Virus record (IMG/VR): IMGVR_UViG_3300043811_000021
Location: 62,001 to 126,000 of that record
From: a virus
DNA: 64,000 nucleotides
Strand: one strand, 5' to 3'
Shown: piece by piece, positions 48,110-56,829 of the stretch
Layout: each line of letters begins with the position of its first letter
Numbering within the stretch: position 1 is the stretch's first letter
Program-made: the position numbers and the translations under genes
The notes under the pieces: model-generated
The model's input: the letters and a program-made list of their open reading frames with translations, nothing else
What the model was told of the DNA's origin: nothing
The model's database searches: none

Positions 48110-50179
48110 TTAGCTTTCTTTCACCGTAGTACGAGGTGTTCCACCTGCCCCGCCTTTTTGGGCGATCTTTGGACCTTTTTGCCCACTTGGGGGTCTTCCT
48201 CCCGGATGTAATCCACCCTTACCTTTACCGCCTTCTTCTGGTGGCTGCAGCCCTAGTTTTTGCATTTCAGCAGCAGCTTCCGCAGCACCCAATATGTTTG
48301 CCTTGGTAATTTCTGCCTTCTCCTTAAAGTATTTCTCCATTTCCTGTCGAGGGTTCTGTACGTCCAACTTAGTAAGAACAGTCTCCCAAGAAATCGGGCA
48401 ATCTGGTGTTCTCTTTAACTGAAGATATTTCAACTGTTCCTTTGCCTGCGTGATCTTCAACAGTGTGCTCGGAACAGAAATCAATCTCAGTTTCTTTACA
48501 AACCATTTTCCTCTAGTCAATTTGTCATACATAGATGGAGTTTTAGGATATAGACCTCCTACCATTTCTTCTGGAAGATGGCTTGGAACCATATCGTCTG
48601 GATTGTAATCAAAAACTTCCCTAGCTATGTTATCTGGTCCGACATACTCAATTAGTCTTTGAGTATCAAACCACTGAGGAATAAGAAACTTAAGTCTTTC
48701 TCCTACTCTCTTGTTTGCCTTTTCTATCCTCATCGCAATACCCTTAGCGACAGGTCCAATAGATTCAATCTGCTTGTCTGCGGTATCGCTGTCCAAATTT
48801 ATCTTCAAGTTAGCTAAATTTCCAAGATCATTTAGACCTAGCTGCGCAAGCATCGAATCATTCAAATGCTTTAACCATTCAAAATCTATATTATCAACCG
48901 TTACCCCGTCAGGAAGAAGTGATTGAACAGTCTTCCTCGGCTCATCCGTACCAAACAATCCTAAACGCACTCCCGAATCAAACGGGTCCCAACGTTCGAT
49001 TTTCGGACCACCATTTTCATCTGCCTTGTACCCTAAAGGCGGGTCTTTCTTCGCGCTAATGCATTGGTCCATCAATCTTTCATACTTCCGAATCGTTGTC
49101 TGAATAGATGACACATCTCCAACCAACGATCTTCCAGATGGCTCCCACGGAACGTCATCAACTGTGTACTGAATTATCGGGATACGCGGGTCCCAGTCGA
49201 AAGCAGGACCGTCGTACATTGGCCTGTCCAACCCGTTAGAAGAAATGATGAGCCGTAAGTTCGGGTACACTCGGCAGTCCTCTGCCATTGCAGGACGCAT
49301 GTATGGCTGACCATTCCTAATACCTCCAAATATCTGCTGACCAACGTAAGGAACTTTATAAAACCATGTAGTCCCAGGGTCACCCATCGGAAGTTCAAAA
49401 CCTGTATTGTTGATCCTTAAGTCCCTAATAAATGTATATCTTATCTCTGTATAGAGATTTCCAAAAGACTTCCCTTGGTCATTCAATTCTCCATAGCGAT
49501 GAGCAGAAGCAAAGTCCTGTCTCTTCGCCTGAATCAAAGACTTATAGTTATTCATACCTACTGTCTGTAACTGTCCTTGGAATAATGGGAATCTTCCATA
49601 CGCCTCTGCAATTGGCATATAGTCATAAACTGTTACCGCATAAGCATCCTGTACATCGTTTGACCGTGAAGGGATTTGTACAGGCATCACATCTAGAAGA
49701 CCAAGAGCGTCAAAGTCCATACTCCTTGGTCCATATCCGTATTCAGTCGCACGGACTTTCGGCCATAGGTATCCAACACCCATTACCGTGGCATATTGGA
49801 GAACTTTCAGAATTTGAAGAGGAAAATCAGATTCGAGATAGACGCACTTGGAGACCTTTGTCAGCATCTCAGCCATCTGCTTGTAGGCAGGAATGTCCGA
49901 TCCAAAAGCAGCAATTTCTCTGACTTCTGCGAGTGTCGTGCAAAATTTATTTACGTTATAGCGAAGAAGGTTTGTAACAAGGGAAGATTTAGTTTTATCT
50001 TTGAATATCCCATTGAAAACACGCAGGTTAGCAGAAAGATTCTTGTACGAAGGTTGCCCTTCCAAATACCCTTCTGCCTCGGAAATCTGAGACTCCACCC
50101 AGCCAATTTTACGGCTAGGAGATGCTTCAAAAGGAGGGCACTGCCATTCTACCGTCTGAATATTTGGATCAAGATACAC
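48110..50179 (-). CDS. Portal protein
   Basis: A 689-residue protein starting with GTG (GGAAAG upstream). Length and features fit a podovirus portal: N-terminal stem part (IGWVESQISEAEGYLEGQPS, LVTNLLRYNVNKFCTTLAEV), a wing region with YEPSG-type VDDVPWEPSGRSLVGDVSSI, and the long clip/crown helices (LNDSMLAQLGLNDL). The C-terminus is a low-complexity Gly/Lys/Pro tail (about 640-689). It forms the dodecameric vertex used for DNA packaging. It sits between TerL and the scaffold gene. Confidence 0.85.
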   Translation of the reverse strand: MYLDPNIQTVEWQCPPFEASPSRKIGWVESQISEAEGYLEGQPSYKNLSANLRVFNGIFKDKTKSSLVTNLLRYNVNKFCTTLAEVREIAAFGSDIPAYKQMAEMLTKVSKCVYLESDFPLQILKVLQYATVMGVGYLWPKVRATEYGYGPRSMDFDALGLLDVMPVQIPSRSNDVQDAYAVTVYDYMPIAEAYGRFPLFQGQLQTVGMNNYKSLIQAKRQDFASAHRYGELNDQGKSFGNLYTEIRYTFIRDLRINNTGFELPMGDPGTTWFYKVPYVGQQIFGGIRNGQPYMRPAMAEDCRVYPNLRLIISSNGLDRPMYDGPAFDWDPRIPIIQYTVDDVPWEPSGRSLVGDVSSIQTTIRKYERLMDQCISAKKDPPLGYKADENGGPKIERWDPFDSGVRLGLFGTDEPRKTVQSLLPDGVTVDNIDFEWLKHLNDSMLAQLGLNDLGNLANLKINLDSDTADKQIESIGPVAKGIAMRIEKANKRVGERLKFLIPQWFDTQRLIEYVGPDNIAREVFDYNPDDMVPSHLPEEMVGGLYPKTPSMYDKLTRGKWFVKKLRLISVPSTLLKITQAKEQLKYLQLKRTPDCPISWETVLTKLDVQNPRQEMEKYFKEKAEITKANILGAAEAAAEMQKLGLQPPEEGGKGKGGLHPGGRPPSGQKGPKIAQKGGAGGTPRTTVKES

Positions 50180-52005: not shown

Positions 52006-54165
52006 TTAATCATCATCCCCAAATACAGAAATTCTGTTGATCAAGCACTTCCCCTCATCAGGGTTCTTTTTCTTCGCTTGAGGTACATTATACCTTCTCT
52101 GCGCTCTTCCTGAAAGATCATCGTAGGTGTGGCAGTTCAAATAACTCTGCGCTGCCGCCCTGATTCTGTCATCATGCTTGTTTTTCTGGTGGGTCATCAC
52201 ATCTCTTCCACCATCTTTCGTCTGTCTCTCAAGAGTCTTCAATTCCTCAATCAACCATTTTGATCTTGGAATATACCAACCACCGTTAACCGCCTCCACA
52301 AAGCGGTCCATAAGAATAGGGACTGTTGTTTTGCTAGAATACCATCCTTCACGGTGTTTGTTTTCGTCCTTAATCTTTCTTCCGTCAAGTCTTCCGGGAG
52401 TGTGGTGGTAATTGAATCCCATGATCTTTAATTGGTTTTGGCAAGTATCACCCGGTCCTTCCACCTGCTCAATTGAGAATTTTACTCCCCTTTGGTCTCT
52501 GCAACTCTTTCCATACCATGTTGCCATAGCCGCTAGGAAAGGAACTGCTTGCGCGGGGCTAAACCGTATAGATGTAAGCTCTGCAACTTGAAGGTCTGCC
52601 CCAGAACCACTAGCTACTCTGGTCATAGATGCGCAGAATCTGTCCTCATCCTCTTTACCAAGTCCATGTGCGGTGTCAACTCCACAACTATACACTGATC
52701 TAGGAATTGGAGGTTCAAAAACCAAAAGTTTGTCAAAAGTAAAACTCTCTGTCTCCTCATCTATAGGAAGTAGAGGAATCAACTCCCAATCGTATTCCTC
52801 ACCGCGATTGTTTTCCCAATGCAGCTTTATCCTATCCTTGTAATTGTCTATGCTTGGATCATCATCATCTGGATAGAACGCTTCTCCTATAGAATGTCCC
52901 TTAATCGCGTAGGCTTGCATCGGTTCTCTACGATACTTTGAACCATCATTTATATTTACTTCGTATATATCCTCTTCTAGTTCCATGATTGTTTCAGCGT
53001 CGAATACGCTGTCATGAACCCCAGTTAGAGCCTCAAAGTCATCTGCTGGCAATCTAGCGGCGTGTTGCTGTAGAGAGTGGCGTTCTTTCGCTCCTATATA
53101 CTCAAACTGCCAGAACCACTGCTGTTCAATAGGTACGCAATAGTTATAACCTACTACCTTTGCTAGATAGTCTGTATTGCGTATGTATGCTTCACATCTC
53201 GCTATATGCGCCTTAGTTGCATCTAATCTTTTTTCATAAAATCCCGGTGGAACTGGATTAGCTCTCAACCAATCCGATTGAGGATAAAGATCAGTAGCTA
53301 GTGGCCATGAGATAAATACTGGACGCATCCTAGAGTGAGGCCAATCTCTTTTTTGTGATTTCCAGAAATCCGGGAACCATCCAACATTACCAGAGCCGGT
53401 ACCCTCAAATACCATGAATAGATTTTTATTCGCGTGGGTAGCAGGTAACAATCCTTCCTCGATGACATTATGCGGATTAGGGATGATGCCTATCTCCGAA
53501 ATATGAATATTATTAGGAGTTTGTCCTTGTGCAATACCTTTAGGTTGCATCCCAGACTCAATCATTAAACGTGAACCATTAGCAAAACTTCTCTTTGGAG
53601 TTCTTGCTGGTATCAACCAAAAAGGGCACATTTCGTATGCTGTATTTAACTTAATTTCGATCTCTTCTGATTTGGACTTTTGCACAGATGCCATGACAGA
53701 AAGAGTGTTCGGAATGAACAGCATCTTGTGAATAAAATATAAAGCTACGAGAGTTGTGATGCCCACTTGTCGAGCTTTCAGCGTAAGAATCTGAATACCA
53801 GCTTGGCGCTCTTCTAGATCTGCCACAACCGCATCAAATACATCTTGAGAACGGCGATTGGCAAACTTTTTTACCTGCCCACCTTCATCTACGACATAAG
53901 AATAATTATCGCGCCAATAATGATAATCCAGACCGCACAAAACTTGCTCATTTTGAACCCAGCGGCGTATTTCCTGCCGCCTTTTTTCTGTCATGGATGC
54001 CACAGAGTCAATCCATGATCCCTTAGAGTTGCTTTCTATTTTTGTGATTGATTTAATATATGCAGTGAATTCTTGCACCTGTCCTAATGTATGACGCACA
54101 GGCTCCCAAGCGTTCTGTGCTGCAAATAACTCTACATTTCGTTCTATAATCCTAGTCGAGTACAC
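52006..54165 (-). CDS. Terminase large subunit
   Basis: A 719-residue protein with the ATPase and nuclease domains of TerL. Walker A is LKARQVGITT (K130-T138) and the Walker B/catalytic region is HISEIGII (E224). The C-terminal RNase H-like nuclease has CGVDTAHGLGKEDEDRF, FSIEQVEGPGD and KHDDRIRAAAQS, supplying the acidic triad. It powers packaging of DNA into the procapsid at the portal. A closely related but degenerate copy lies just upstream (54494-55729). Confidence 0.9.
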   Translation of the reverse strand: MYSTRIIERNVELFAAQNAWEPVRHTLGQVQEFTAYIKSITKIESNSKGSWIDSVASMTEKRRQEIRRWVQNEQVLCGLDYHYWRDNYSYVVDEGGQVKKFANRRSQDVFDAVVADLEERQAGIQILTLKARQVGITTLVALYFIHKMLFIPNTLSVMASVQKSKSEEIEIKLNTAYEMCPFWLIPARTPKRSFANGSRLMIESGMQPKGIAQGQTPNNIHISEIGIIPNPHNVIEEGLLPATHANKNLFMVFEGTGSGNVGWFPDFWKSQKRDWPHSRMRPVFISWPLATDLYPQSDWLRANPVPPGFYEKRLDATKAHIARCEAYIRNTDYLAKVVGYNYCVPIEQQWFWQFEYIGAKERHSLQQHAARLPADDFEALTGVHDSVFDAETIMELEEDIYEVNINDGSKYRREPMQAYAIKGHSIGEAFYPDDDDPSIDNYKDRIKLHWENNRGEEYDWELIPLLPIDEETESFTFDKLLVFEPPIPRSVYSCGVDTAHGLGKEDEDRFCASMTRVASGSGADLQVAELTSIRFSPAQAVPFLAAMATWYGKSCRDQRGVKFSIEQVEGPGDTCQNQLKIMGFNYHHTPGRLDGRKIKDENKHREGWYSSKTTVPILMDRFVEAVNGGWYIPRSKWLIEELKTLERQTKDGGRDVMTHQKNKHDDRIRAAAQSYLNCHTYDDLSGRAQRRYNVPQAKKKNPDEGKCLINRISVFGDDD

Positions 54166-54411
54166 CTATCTCACCATTGTTCTCTTCCCGCGTGGCACCC
54201 AGTGTGGTATCAATCCGGTAATCCGTTTCATATATGCAGCATCTGAATCATCCATCTGCTCTATTAAATCTTCCCAACTATCGAATATGCATTGCCCATC
54301 AAAATACAAGAATTGAGCGCAGCATGTATCGTAAAAACAAAACTGACGAGACCACTCAGGATCGGTTTCGTCAAGTGCTATTTGCTTACCGAGGTCTATG
54401 AATCGTATCAA
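54166..54411 (-). CDS. Conserved phage small protein (FYDT...FDSWEDL)
   Basis: An 81-residue protein starting with TTG (GGAGG 4 nt upstream). FIDLGKQIALDETDPEWSRQ and CIFDSWEDLIEQ match a small protein common in phages near terminase or early genes, of unknown function. It ends at the TerL start. Confidence 0.68.
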   Translation of the reverse strand: MIRFIDLGKQIALDETDPEWSRQFCFYDTCCAQFLYFDGQCIFDSWEDLIEQMDDSDAAYMKRITGLIPHWVPRGKRTMVR

Positions 54412-54491
54412 TTAGCCTCCGCCATATCGTAAATCTTACCAGCAGATAGGAGCCACGGTGATGTCTTTGCTATGTCAGTAAGTTGGATCAT
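54408..54491 (-). CDS. 27-residue peptide between the terminase genes
   Basis: A short frame starting 2 nt after the stop of the TerL paralogue, with AAGG directly upstream, and ending in overlap with the next TTG start (TTGA). It reads MIQLTDIAKTSPWLLSAGKI and ends YDMAEAN. Possible coupling peptide; translation is unproven. Confidence 0.35.
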   Translation of the reverse strand: MIQLTDIAKTSPWLLSAGKIYDMAEAN

Positions 54492-54493
54492 CC

Positions 54494-55729
54494 TTAGATT
54501 TCTTTCCTTCTTGCCAAAGCAACTTTTTCCTGAATGGTTTTAGAGTCTGGAAAAATCTCGTCTAGTTCTATATCCTCGGTGACATCTTTCTTATTGTCCC
54601 CGTCATCTGGAGGGAACCTTATCAGGAAATCCTCTAGATTTTTGCGATCCTCTGCTTGTTTATACCCATCTTCCCACCACCATTGCTGCTCAGTCGGCAT
54701 TTCCCAATGATCTCCCATAATCTTAGACAGGTACGGAGTGCTACGGATGAAGTTCTCGCAGCGCTTTTTGTGCTCTATCGTTATATCATTAGGTTTCCAA
54801 TCGTTAGGAATCGGGTATGCCTTCAACCAATCTGGTTGTGGGTAGATGTCAGTTGACACAACCCACGGAATAAACACAGGGCATAACCTTGAAAATCCTT
54901 TAGGCCAATACTCTTTGGCTGATCGATACGCATCTGTAAACCATCCATTTTCGGTCACTTTATTACCGTGTAATACAAGGAATGTGTTGCTCGATGAGAA
55001 TACTGCTCTCAATAAACCCTCTTCAATCACTCTCGTTGGGTTAGGAATAGACTCGATATTGGTTACATATACTGCGTTCGGAGTGAATCCCTGCGCCAAA
55101 CCAGTTTTTTGACTAGTAGATTGTACAGATAATCCAGACCCGTTGTTAAACTTTCCCTTATTGTTTTTAATTGGAATTAACCACCAAGGAAGTTTATCGT
55201 ATGCTTTATCTATAAAGCTTGTTATTAAAGTGGATTTTTCGTGAGTAACGGATGCCACAATTGAATGAGTGTTAGGGGAAAATAATAGGCGATGCATTAT
55301 TTTTAGCATTACCTTGGTAAAAACTCCGCTTTGACGCGATCCGAGAATCAGAAGTTCTATCGATGATCCTCTATCTTCCAAGTCTGAAATGATTAAGTCA
55401 AGAACTTCCTGAGACTTTCTATTTTTGAATTTTGTAATTGTTCCGCACTCATTAACTATGTACGCATATCGGCTCTCAAAATATCCGCTGTCAATCGCGC
55501 ACATAGCCTGCTCGTTTTCAACCCACCTTTTTATTTCTTTTTGCCTTTTTGATGAAATTGGTTTTACCGATTCAATCCATGAATTCTTCGAGTTACTTCC
55601 TATCTCTACAGTCAAGTTGATGTACGCCTTAAACTCGTTTACCTCATCCAAAGAATGTGGAGTTGGCATCCATCCTTCTCTTGCGGCGAAAGCATCGAGT
55701 GTTTCTTGAATCTTTTTCTGTGAATACAT
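54494..55729 (-). CDS. Degenerate terminase large subunit paralogue lacking the nuclease domain
   Basis: A 411-residue protein colinear with TerL without gaps for at least its first 230 residues (for example MYSQKKIQETLDAFAAREGW against MYSTRIIERNVELFAAQNAW). The P-loop reads LGSRQSGVFT where TerL has LKARQVGITT (K130 to G, T137 to F), and the catalytic segment reads YVTNIESI against HISEIGII (E224 to N). The nuclease domain is absent. The reading frame is intact, so it looks like a maintained pseudoenzyme, perhaps a regulatory or structural motor subunit. It lies between the TerS-like gene and TerL. Confidence 0.85.
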   Translation of the reverse strand: MYSQKKIQETLDAFAAREGWMPTPHSLDEVNEFKAYINLTVEIGSNSKNSWIESVKPISSKRQKEIKRWVENEQAMCAIDSGYFESRYAYIVNECGTITKFKNRKSQEVLDLIISDLEDRGSSIELLILGSRQSGVFTKVMLKIMHRLLFSPNTHSIVASVTHEKSTLITSFIDKAYDKLPWWLIPIKNNKGKFNNGSGLSVQSTSQKTGLAQGFTPNAVYVTNIESIPNPTRVIEEGLLRAVFSSSNTFLVLHGNKVTENGWFTDAYRSAKEYWPKGFSRLCPVFIPWVVSTDIYPQPDWLKAYPIPNDWKPNDITIEHKKRCENFIRSTPYLSKIMGDHWEMPTEQQWWWEDGYKQAEDRKNLEDFLIRFPPDDGDNKKDVTEDIELDEIFPDSKTIQEKVALARRKEI

Positions 55730-55737
55730 ATTATCTC

Positions 55738-56238
55738 CTATCCTTCTAGTAACCTCTGCCTTATCGGAACCAGTTTTTCTTGCACTTCGTTAGGGCTTGG
55801 GAATAGATCATCAAACCCATCCTTACTCTCGTATGAAGCGTCTACTGTCTTACCGTCTTCATCATCATCTCCACCTCTCCCGTTAGCATTAAGATTATTC
55901 TGATTCAGATTAATGGTAGTCTTCTGCCCGCTCGGCTTAGGTAATATACCAACAGTAATATCCAAGGCTGTTCTGTCTTTCTCTGCTCCTACATGTTCGA
56001 GTCCGAAGTTTACTCTTGCTTTCGTTATCGCAGGATGATTCGATACAGCTATAAACCTACTCCTATTCCAGCAGTGAGATTCAACAGACAGCCGTATTGC
56101 ACCTAAAAGATGCTTAGGATTGACTTTCGCTTTAATGGCAATTGCTTCCCAAGGGATTCTTTTCCTATCTTCAATAGGAACCTTATCGTATACCTTCAAA
56201 AACTCTCTTATATCAGAATCTTCTGTAGAAAAACGCAT
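55738..56238 (-). CDS. Terminase small subunit-like protein
   Basis: The conserved core SDIREFLKVYDKVPIEDRKR, IPWEAIAIKAKVNPKHLLGA and the GILPKP segment followed by an Asn-rich part fit a small-terminase-like protein that brings DNA to TerL; the place directly upstream of the terminase genes agrees. The frame is open up to 56625 (295 aa, with a GGAAGG site), but that extension overlaps the upstream gene by about 300 nt and is low-complexity and charged. I give the conservative ATG at 56236-56238; ATG 56415 and TTG 56310 are alternatives. Confidence 0.6.
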   Translation of the reverse strand: MRFSTEDSDIREFLKVYDKVPIEDRKRIPWEAIAIKAKVNPKHLLGAIRLSVESHCWNRSRFIAVSNHPAITKARVNFGLEHVGAEKDRTALDITVGILPKPSGQKTTINLNQNNLNANGRGGDDDEDGKTVDASYESKDGFDDLFPSPNEVQEKLVPIRQRLLEG

Positions 56239-56317
56239 AGCCTCAAGAGCAGATTTTAATCCGCCCTTGAGGTCTCTTTTAATAATAGGAGTAATCTTCG
56301 GTGCCGATGCCAATACT

Positions 56318-56695
56318 TCAGGCTTTACCCTCAACCTCTTCAGTGCTTGTTCCGACCTCTTCTGTAGGTCCGACAATTTCGGGACTTGCAGGAGAGATTT
56401 GTCTTTCTTTGGCATGATCTCTAAGGTACTGCCTGGTTCGTTCTCCGATGTACTCATCGTCATCTTCTTCAATGTCTGGGTCAACAATTTCTTGGATGGT
56501 TCTTCTTCTTGCGCCTTGGTTTTTTCTTTCTCTCTCTTCTTCGCTTTCGACACGGGTGAGCTTTGTTTCTCTTTGTTCTCTTGGCTCTGGCCAGTATCGA
56601 GTTCCTGCTCTTCGAGTTGACTCATTTAGACCTTCCAATGCAGTTGCTATTCTTTCAAATGCGGTTACTAATTTCTCTTCGATGTCTTCATTCAT
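56318..56695 (-). CDS. Conserved phage hypothetical protein upstream of TerS
   Basis: A 125-residue protein with GAGGAG 6 nt before the ATG. KLVTAFERIATALEGLNEST, RYWPEPREQRETKLTRVESE and ERERKNQGARRRTIQEIVDP recall a small protein common near phage terminase genes. Acidic and helical. It shares its DNA with the possible long N-terminus of the TerS-like frame. Confidence 0.68.
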   Translation of the reverse strand: MNEDIEEKLVTAFERIATALEGLNESTRRAGTRYWPEPREQRETKLTRVESEEERERKNQGARRRTIQEIVDPDIEEDDDEYIGERTRQYLRDHAKERQISPASPEIVGPTEEVGTSTEEVEGKA

Positions 56696-56829
56696 TACGG
56701 TCTCCTCTTCGGATTCAACCATTCATCGCGCTGTATAGGGCACATTTCTGGAGCGATCCTATGCATACCGCGCTTTCCAGATTCTCCACATATGCGTTCA
56801 CACTCCGCTTTCTTTTCCTGTTCTGTCAT
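56695..56829 (-). CDS. 44-residue hypothetical protein
   Basis: A short frame with GAGGGG 5 nt before the ATG and a TAATG overlap with the next gene. It is charged, with three Cys (KAECERICGESGKRG...APEMC), a possible metal site. Good spacing supports translation. Confidence 0.6.
   Translation of the reverse strand: MTEQEKKAECERICGESGKRGMHRIAPEMCPIQRDEWLNPKRRP

What the first reader, a model, noticed from the sequence alone, without database searches (positions are those of the whole stretch)
52006..55729. Tandem terminase: active TerL plus a P-loop-dead, nuclease-less twin
The two proteins align without gaps through residue 230. The upstream copy has K130G and T137F in the P-loop, E224N at the catalytic site and ends before the nuclease domain, yet its frame is intact and has its own ribosome binding context. 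Mixed motor rings with a non-catalytic subunit are not described for phage terminases as far as I know. It could be a motor regulator, or a decoy for anti-terminase defences.
Basis: partly seen in the sequence, partly recalled or inferred. Interest (0 to 1): 0.85.

Follow-up and report, generated by a model that had tools for sequence, protein, structure and literature searches.

The report
Dead packaging-motor twin with TerS-type tail
Next to its DNA-packaging motor gene this soil phage keeps a second copy whose energy-burning site has been destroyed and whose cutting domain has been replaced by the tail of the motor's partner protein; related copies elsewhere show it is maintained by selection, which points to a non-working motor subunit with a job of its own.

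Summary
Window 52006-54165(-) is an intact large terminase (TerL). The twin is neither a lone oddity nor decaying. I found orthologues in three more phage lineages (L049/L054, L050, L067). All are dead in the same motifs, form one clade (100/98), and the best-resolved pair shows strong purifying selection (omega about 0.01; 2dlnL 225 against omega = 1). The key new finding is that every twin ends in the C-terminal tail of the family's TerS candidate (acidic linker, LFP, helix). Among 17,031 reading frames only TerS proteins and twins carry that tail, and no TerL does. The twin is therefore a chimera: a TerL pseudo-ATPase plus a TerS-type tail. In lambda, P22, T4 and a GTA the TerS C-terminus binds TerL, so I infer that the twin docks on TerL as a non-catalytic partner. 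It is accessory: absent from most relatives and even from one near-identical phage. Its function in infection (self-regulation, poisoning rivals, defence decoy) is untested.

The parts
54494..55729 (-). Twin: 411-aa catalytically dead TerL ATPase-domain paralogue ending in a TerS-type tail
   Evidence: orthologues L049/L054/L050/L067
55316..55345 (-). Degenerate Walker A of the twin (residues 129-138, LGSRQSGVFT; K130G, T137F)
55052..55075 (-). Degenerate Walker B of the twin (residues 219-226; S223T, E224N)
54956..54976 (-). Degenerate motif III / coupling motif of the twin (residues 252-258; E254H, T256N, G257K)
54497..54577 (-). TerS-type C-terminal tail of the twin (residues 385-411, EDIELDEIFPDSKTIQEKVALARRKEI; isolated helix 396-410)
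55735..55739 (-). Shine-Dalgarno AGGAG of the twin, overlapping the TerS stop codon
55738..56625 (-). TerS candidate (295 aa, all-helical core); its tail (55741-55821) matches the twin's tail
   Evidence: no family or fold match
54166..54411 (-). 81-aa ORF between twin and TerL, conserved directly after TerS in relatives that lack the twin
52006..54165 (-). Active-looking TerL, 719 aa, ATPase and nuclease motifs intact
48110..50179 (-). Portal protein (context)

Best explanation
Shown: the twin is a conserved pseudo-ATPase, made of the complete N-terminal motor domain of TerL with its ATP-hydrolysis residues lost, cut off before the nuclease and ending in the acidic-linker + LFP + helix tail of the family's TerS candidate. 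It most simply arose by one tandem duplication running from just before the TerS tail to about TerL codon 382, which yields TerS / TerL-N::tail / TerL in a single event (inferred). Inferred mechanism: the twin docks on the active TerL through the TerS-type tail, and possibly through motor-to-motor contacts. It works as a non-catalytic partner of the holoterminase or motor ring that competes with or supplements TerS, and so tunes initiation, speed or termination of packaging in the phage's own infection.
For: Four twin lineages, all dead at K130, E224, E254, T256 and G257 where data exist, while most other strongly conserved TerL positions are kept (38-43 of 47 in the three full-length twins, 31 of 36 in L050). 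Twins form one clade, 100/98. Strong purifying selection with synonymous sites saturated; twin dN 0.344 against TerL dN 0.397 for the same two phages. A TerS-tail profile finds only TerS proteins and all five twin sequences; each twin tail beats its own shuffles, 0-5 of 20,000. The model has the TerL ATPase fold, pLDDT 91.5, top hit T4 gp17, and twin and TerS candidate each end in a linker followed by an isolated helix. The TerS C-terminus binds TerL in lambda and P22 (PMC9611059), RcGTA (PMC6854486) and T4 (PMC10893049). The T4 motor tolerates dead subunits (PMC8589836). T4 gene 17 amplifications arise around the pac site in the 3' end of the TerS gene (PMC3012670).
Against: No direct evidence of binding. 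TerS identity rests on gene order and architecture; no family or fold hit. The twin is accessory and patchy, even within one species (L055 lacks it), which fits an optional weapon or decoy at least as well as a motor part. In L067 the twin lies downstream of TerL, which the simple duplication does not predict. The tail is short, and its second half diverges between twins.
Confidence: 0.47

Rival explanations
1. Interference factor: a dominant-negative TerL/TerS mimic that poisons the packaging motors of related co-infecting phages or satellites.
For: Accessory and patchy distribution, present/absent between near-identical phages. Many related phages with divergent TerLs exist. Dead subunits slow or stall motors (PMC8589836). 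A TerS tail would let it dock on rival TerLs.
Against: It would also hit its own TerL unless the interface has diverged; not testable here. It sits in the packaging gene cluster between TerS and TerL, which suggests late expression with them.
Confidence: 0.22
2. Decoy for host sensors that recognise TerL (Avs1-3): a TerL-fold protein that occupies the sensor without triggering it.
For: Avs1-3 recognise the large terminase (PMC12724215, PMC12931631). The twin keeps the TerL fold, and Avs3-bound PhiV-1 TerL is among its fold matches. Patchy distribution fits an arms race.
Against: A TerL-fold protein might just as well activate the sensor. The TerS-type tail kept in all twins is not explained. 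Host and its defences unknown.
Confidence: 0.12
3. Another role of a dead terminase fold, for example DNA binding, prohead or portal docking, or a structural role, with the tail binding something other than TerL.
For: The partner of the TerS tail in this phage family is unknown; the portal gene is also nearby.
Against: In phages with data the TerS C-terminus binds TerL (PMC9611059, PMC6854486, PMC10893049).
Confidence: 0.15
4. Recombination remnant (pseudogene) without function.
For: Truncated, catalytically dead, and absent from most relatives.
Against: Intact frames in all twins with synonymous sites saturated; omega about 0.01 with 2dlnL 225 against omega = 1; all three differences between the L049 and L054 twins are synonymous; Shine-Dalgarno present.
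Confidence: 0.03

Closest known systems
Phage large terminase (TerL; T4 gp17, HK97, P74-26, PhiV-1 gp19)
   Same: Same ATPase fold (T4 gp17 ATPase domain is the top fold match); derived from within this phage family's own TerL clade.
   Different: Catalytic Lys, catalytic Glu and motif III lost; no nuclease domain; TerS-type tail added.
Phage small terminase (TerS), C-terminal TerL-binding region (lambda gpNu1, P22 gp3, T4 gp16, RcGTA gp1)
   Same: C-terminal tail matches the family's TerS-candidate tail; expected to contact TerL as TerS C-termini do elsewhere.
   Different: Twin lacks the TerS helical core; it carries a TerL motor fold instead.
T4 motors doped with ATPase-dead gp17 (PMC8589836)
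   Same: Mixed rings with non-catalytic subunits are possible and still package.
   Different: Made by experiment with a point mutant; not a natural dedicated dead subunit, and no TerS tail.
T4 gene 17 amplification (Hp17) mutants
   Same: Terminase gene duplication arising around the 3' end of the TerS gene (PMC3012670, PMC10893049).
   Different: T4 copies are selected amplifications; this copy has diverged, is truncated and is fused.

Membership tests
TerL (catalytic large terminase) | ATPase fold of viral terminases | tested here: met
   Model pLDDT 91.5; T4 gp17 2o0j E 2.9e-10
TerL (catalytic large terminase) | Walker A lysine | tested here: not met
   K130 100% in TerLs; G/G/Q in the three twins with data
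TerL (catalytic large terminase) | Walker B catalytic glutamate | tested here: not met
   E224 100% in TerLs; N/G/D/D in twins
TerL (catalytic large terminase) | Motif III (coupling motif) | tested here: not met
   0 of 3 conserved positions kept in all four twins
TerL (catalytic large terminase) | C-terminal RNase H-like nuclease domain | tested here: not met
   Similarity to TerL ends at about residue 380-400, followed only by the tail
TerS (small terminase) | C-terminal tail of this family's TerS candidate | tested here: met
   Tail profile finds only TerS and twins
TerS (small terminase) | Helical DNA-binding / oligomerisation core | tested here: not met
   Twin has the TerL motor fold instead
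TerS (small terminase) | That ORF 55738-56625 is itself a TerS | tested here: inconclusive
   Just upstream of TerL in more than 50 relatives, helical core, but no family or fold hit
Non-catalytic subunit of a mixed motor ring | Physical incorporation or binding to TerL | not testable with these tools
   Needs binding and packaging assays or complex prediction
Anti-Avs decoy | Binds an Avs sensor without activating it | not testable with these tools
   Host and its Avs content unknown
Pseudogene | Relaxed selection, broken frames | tested here: not met
   omega about 0.01, 2dlnL 225; all twin frames open

The most novel reading that the evidence does not exclude
Some phages encode a dedicated non-catalytic subunit for their DNA-packaging motor: a pseudo-ATPase built by fusing the TerL motor domain to the TerS docking tail, which inserts into or caps the TerL ring or holoterminase and regulates it.
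Probability: 0.35. Interest if true: 0.9.

Novelty: new variant of a known kind. Interest (0 to 1): 0.72.

Why it matters
Packaging motors are treated as homomeric rings. A natural, selected, catalytically dead motor subunit carrying the docking tail of the other terminase subunit would be a built-in test of how rings coordinate, how TerS talks to TerL, and whether phages use terminase mimics against rivals or immune sensors. The tail swap also names the partner to test first.

Tried and rejected
Pseudogene: rejected by open frames and selection. Twin as a recent local copy of the window's own TerL: rejected, since twins branch together outside the window TerL's own clade. Twin unique to this phage: first scans suggested so, but the profile scan found orthologues. 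Twins in bacterial genomes or isolated phages: none. TerS identity by PHROGs, PDB sequence or fold: no match. Chance tail similarity: rejected by profile search and shuffles; two earlier scripts for the shuffle test failed on a command option and gave no shuffle data. No published TerL pseudoenzyme found in the papers held. YN00 dN/dS failed because synonymous sites are saturated.

Full report
What is there. The window is bases 62001-126000 of a 134,145-base IMG/VR virus contig. On the minus strand the order is TerS candidate 55738-56625, twin 54494-55729, an 81-aa ORF 54166-54411, TerL 52006-54165, four small genes, and portal 48110-50179. The twin is 411 aa, intact, with AGGAG five bases before its ATG. 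Twin and TerL align without gaps to about residue 275 at 44-45% identity.

Relatives. TerL relatives from viral contigs first showed no twin: none of the other 37 records searched held one. In the closest relatives with complete upstream sequence (L004, L005, L006, L011) the TerS candidate is followed directly by the 81-aa ORF and TerL, the empty site. A profile scan then found orthologues: L049 201-1448 (59% identical to the window twin), L054 (near-identical, 5' truncated), L050 63-770 (partial) and L067 8153-9385 (42%), each next to a normal TerL. Among 70 distinct TerLs with at least 1.5 kb of upstream sequence, only L067 and L050 carry one; L049 and L054 have shorter flanks, and the window adds another. 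L055, whose TerL differs from that of L049 at 33 of 1890 bases, lacks it; there the TerS tail stands exactly where the twin's tail stands in L049, followed by the same 88-aa gene. No relative was found in bacterial and archaeal genomes, and among isolated phages only distant TerLs of Tunturiibacter phages matched along their length (26-28%), a hint at Acidobacteriota hosts.

Dead but kept. Of 57 TerL positions at least 95% conserved in 66 TerLs, the window twin keeps 41 of 47 outside the catalytic motifs, 3 of 4 in Walker A (losing the lysine), 0 of 3 in Walker B and 0 of 3 in motif III; the other twins behave alike (Fisher p 0.015 to 9e-5, printed before that script failed). The replacing residues differ between twins, so catalysis seems simply not to be needed. 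Twins form one clade (100/98) nested in the TerLs, though L050 and L067 sit on long branches; the shared tail is independent support for common origin. Pairwise codon likelihood for window against L049 gives omega 0.012 and 2dlnL 225 against omega = 1; synonymous sites are saturated, so the exact value is soft but neutrality is excluded. For that pair of phages the twin has diverged no more than TerL (dN 0.344 against 0.397).

The tail. All twins end like the TerS candidates: window twin DEIFPDSKTIQEKVALARRKEI, L049 ETLFPQPVAMQEKVAAARKKLEG, L050 GSVFPTPVVTQEKVRKLLQTE, L067 DEIFPNPIDIQNKISQYSGARE; window TerS DDLFPSPNEVQEKLVPIRQRLLEG. A profile of TerS tails run over 6317 ORFs found the TerS set, then all five twins, then nothing convincing; no TerL. 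Repeated over 17,031 frames the result held, with the weakest twin (L050) at E 0.28. Each twin tail beats 19,995 or more of 20,000 shuffles, and the best TerL segment scores far lower. In the models both twin and TerS candidate end in a floppy linker and an isolated helix.

How it likely works. The twin model (pLDDT 91.5) matches the T4 gp17 ATPase domain best and other terminases next. In lambda, P22, T4 and a gene transfer agent the C-terminal part of TerS binds TerL, in the GTA its ATPase domain (PMC9611059, PMC10893049, PMC6854486). The inference is that the twin docks on TerL by a borrowed TerS tail. T4 motors accept dead subunits but slow and pause (PMC8589836); subtle Walker B changes kill T4 packaging (PMC3012670), so the E-to-D changes in L050 and L067 are probably dead too. 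Whether the target is the phage's own motor, a rival's motor or a host sensor cannot be decided here; patchy presence keeps all three open.

Origin. One tandem duplication from just before the TerS tail to about TerL codon 382 gives the chimera and the order TerS-twin-TerL at once (inference). T4 shows terminase gene amplification around the pac site in the TerS 3' end (PMC3012670). L067, with the twin after TerL, needs an extra rearrangement.

Limits. TerS is named by position and architecture only. Four lineages are few. Binding and function are inferred, not shown. The paper library holds only open-licence papers, so earlier reports in subscription journals may have been missed.

Noticed in passing
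L015 8157-8879, L013 2706-3503, L010 5677-6456, L026 2846-3595, L034 3264-4019, L125, L128: Relatives carry the opposite half-copy: a TerL nuclease-domain-only paralogue behind TerL, with a twin-arginine (Tat) signal-like leader and lost catalytic Asp residues (third motif DDR lost in all eight seen). A dead, possibly exported terminase nuclease domain is very odd.
   Followed up: partly
L020 6277-7053, L024 6277-7062, L139 503-1210 (TerL residue 92); L013 130-972 (residue 129, at the P-loop); L140, L145, L146, L148, L150 (residues 77 and about 218): Insertions in TerL at several conserved sites; those at residues 92 and 129 look like inteins (Pfam intein splicing domain, Cys/Asp...Asn ends).
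   Followed up: partly
window 56318-56722 (-) over 55738-56625 (-): A 134-aa ORF overlaps about 300 bases of the TerS candidate's 5' part in another frame; both are conserved in most relatives, so the disordered TerS N-terminus is coded over another gene.
   Followed up: no
L010 820-1809, L017 4808-5674, L015 4899-5759, L003 3669-4532: The TerS-TerL junction looks like an insertion hot spot: HNH-like gene, PAPS-reductase-like gene and an unknown 286-aa gene occupy the twin's place in relatives.
   Followed up: partly
L004 9443-9874, L067 4241-4735, L050 4803-5126: Other small phage proteins share a Tat-like leader (MNRRSFFKFLGIG...) with different bodies.
   Followed up: no
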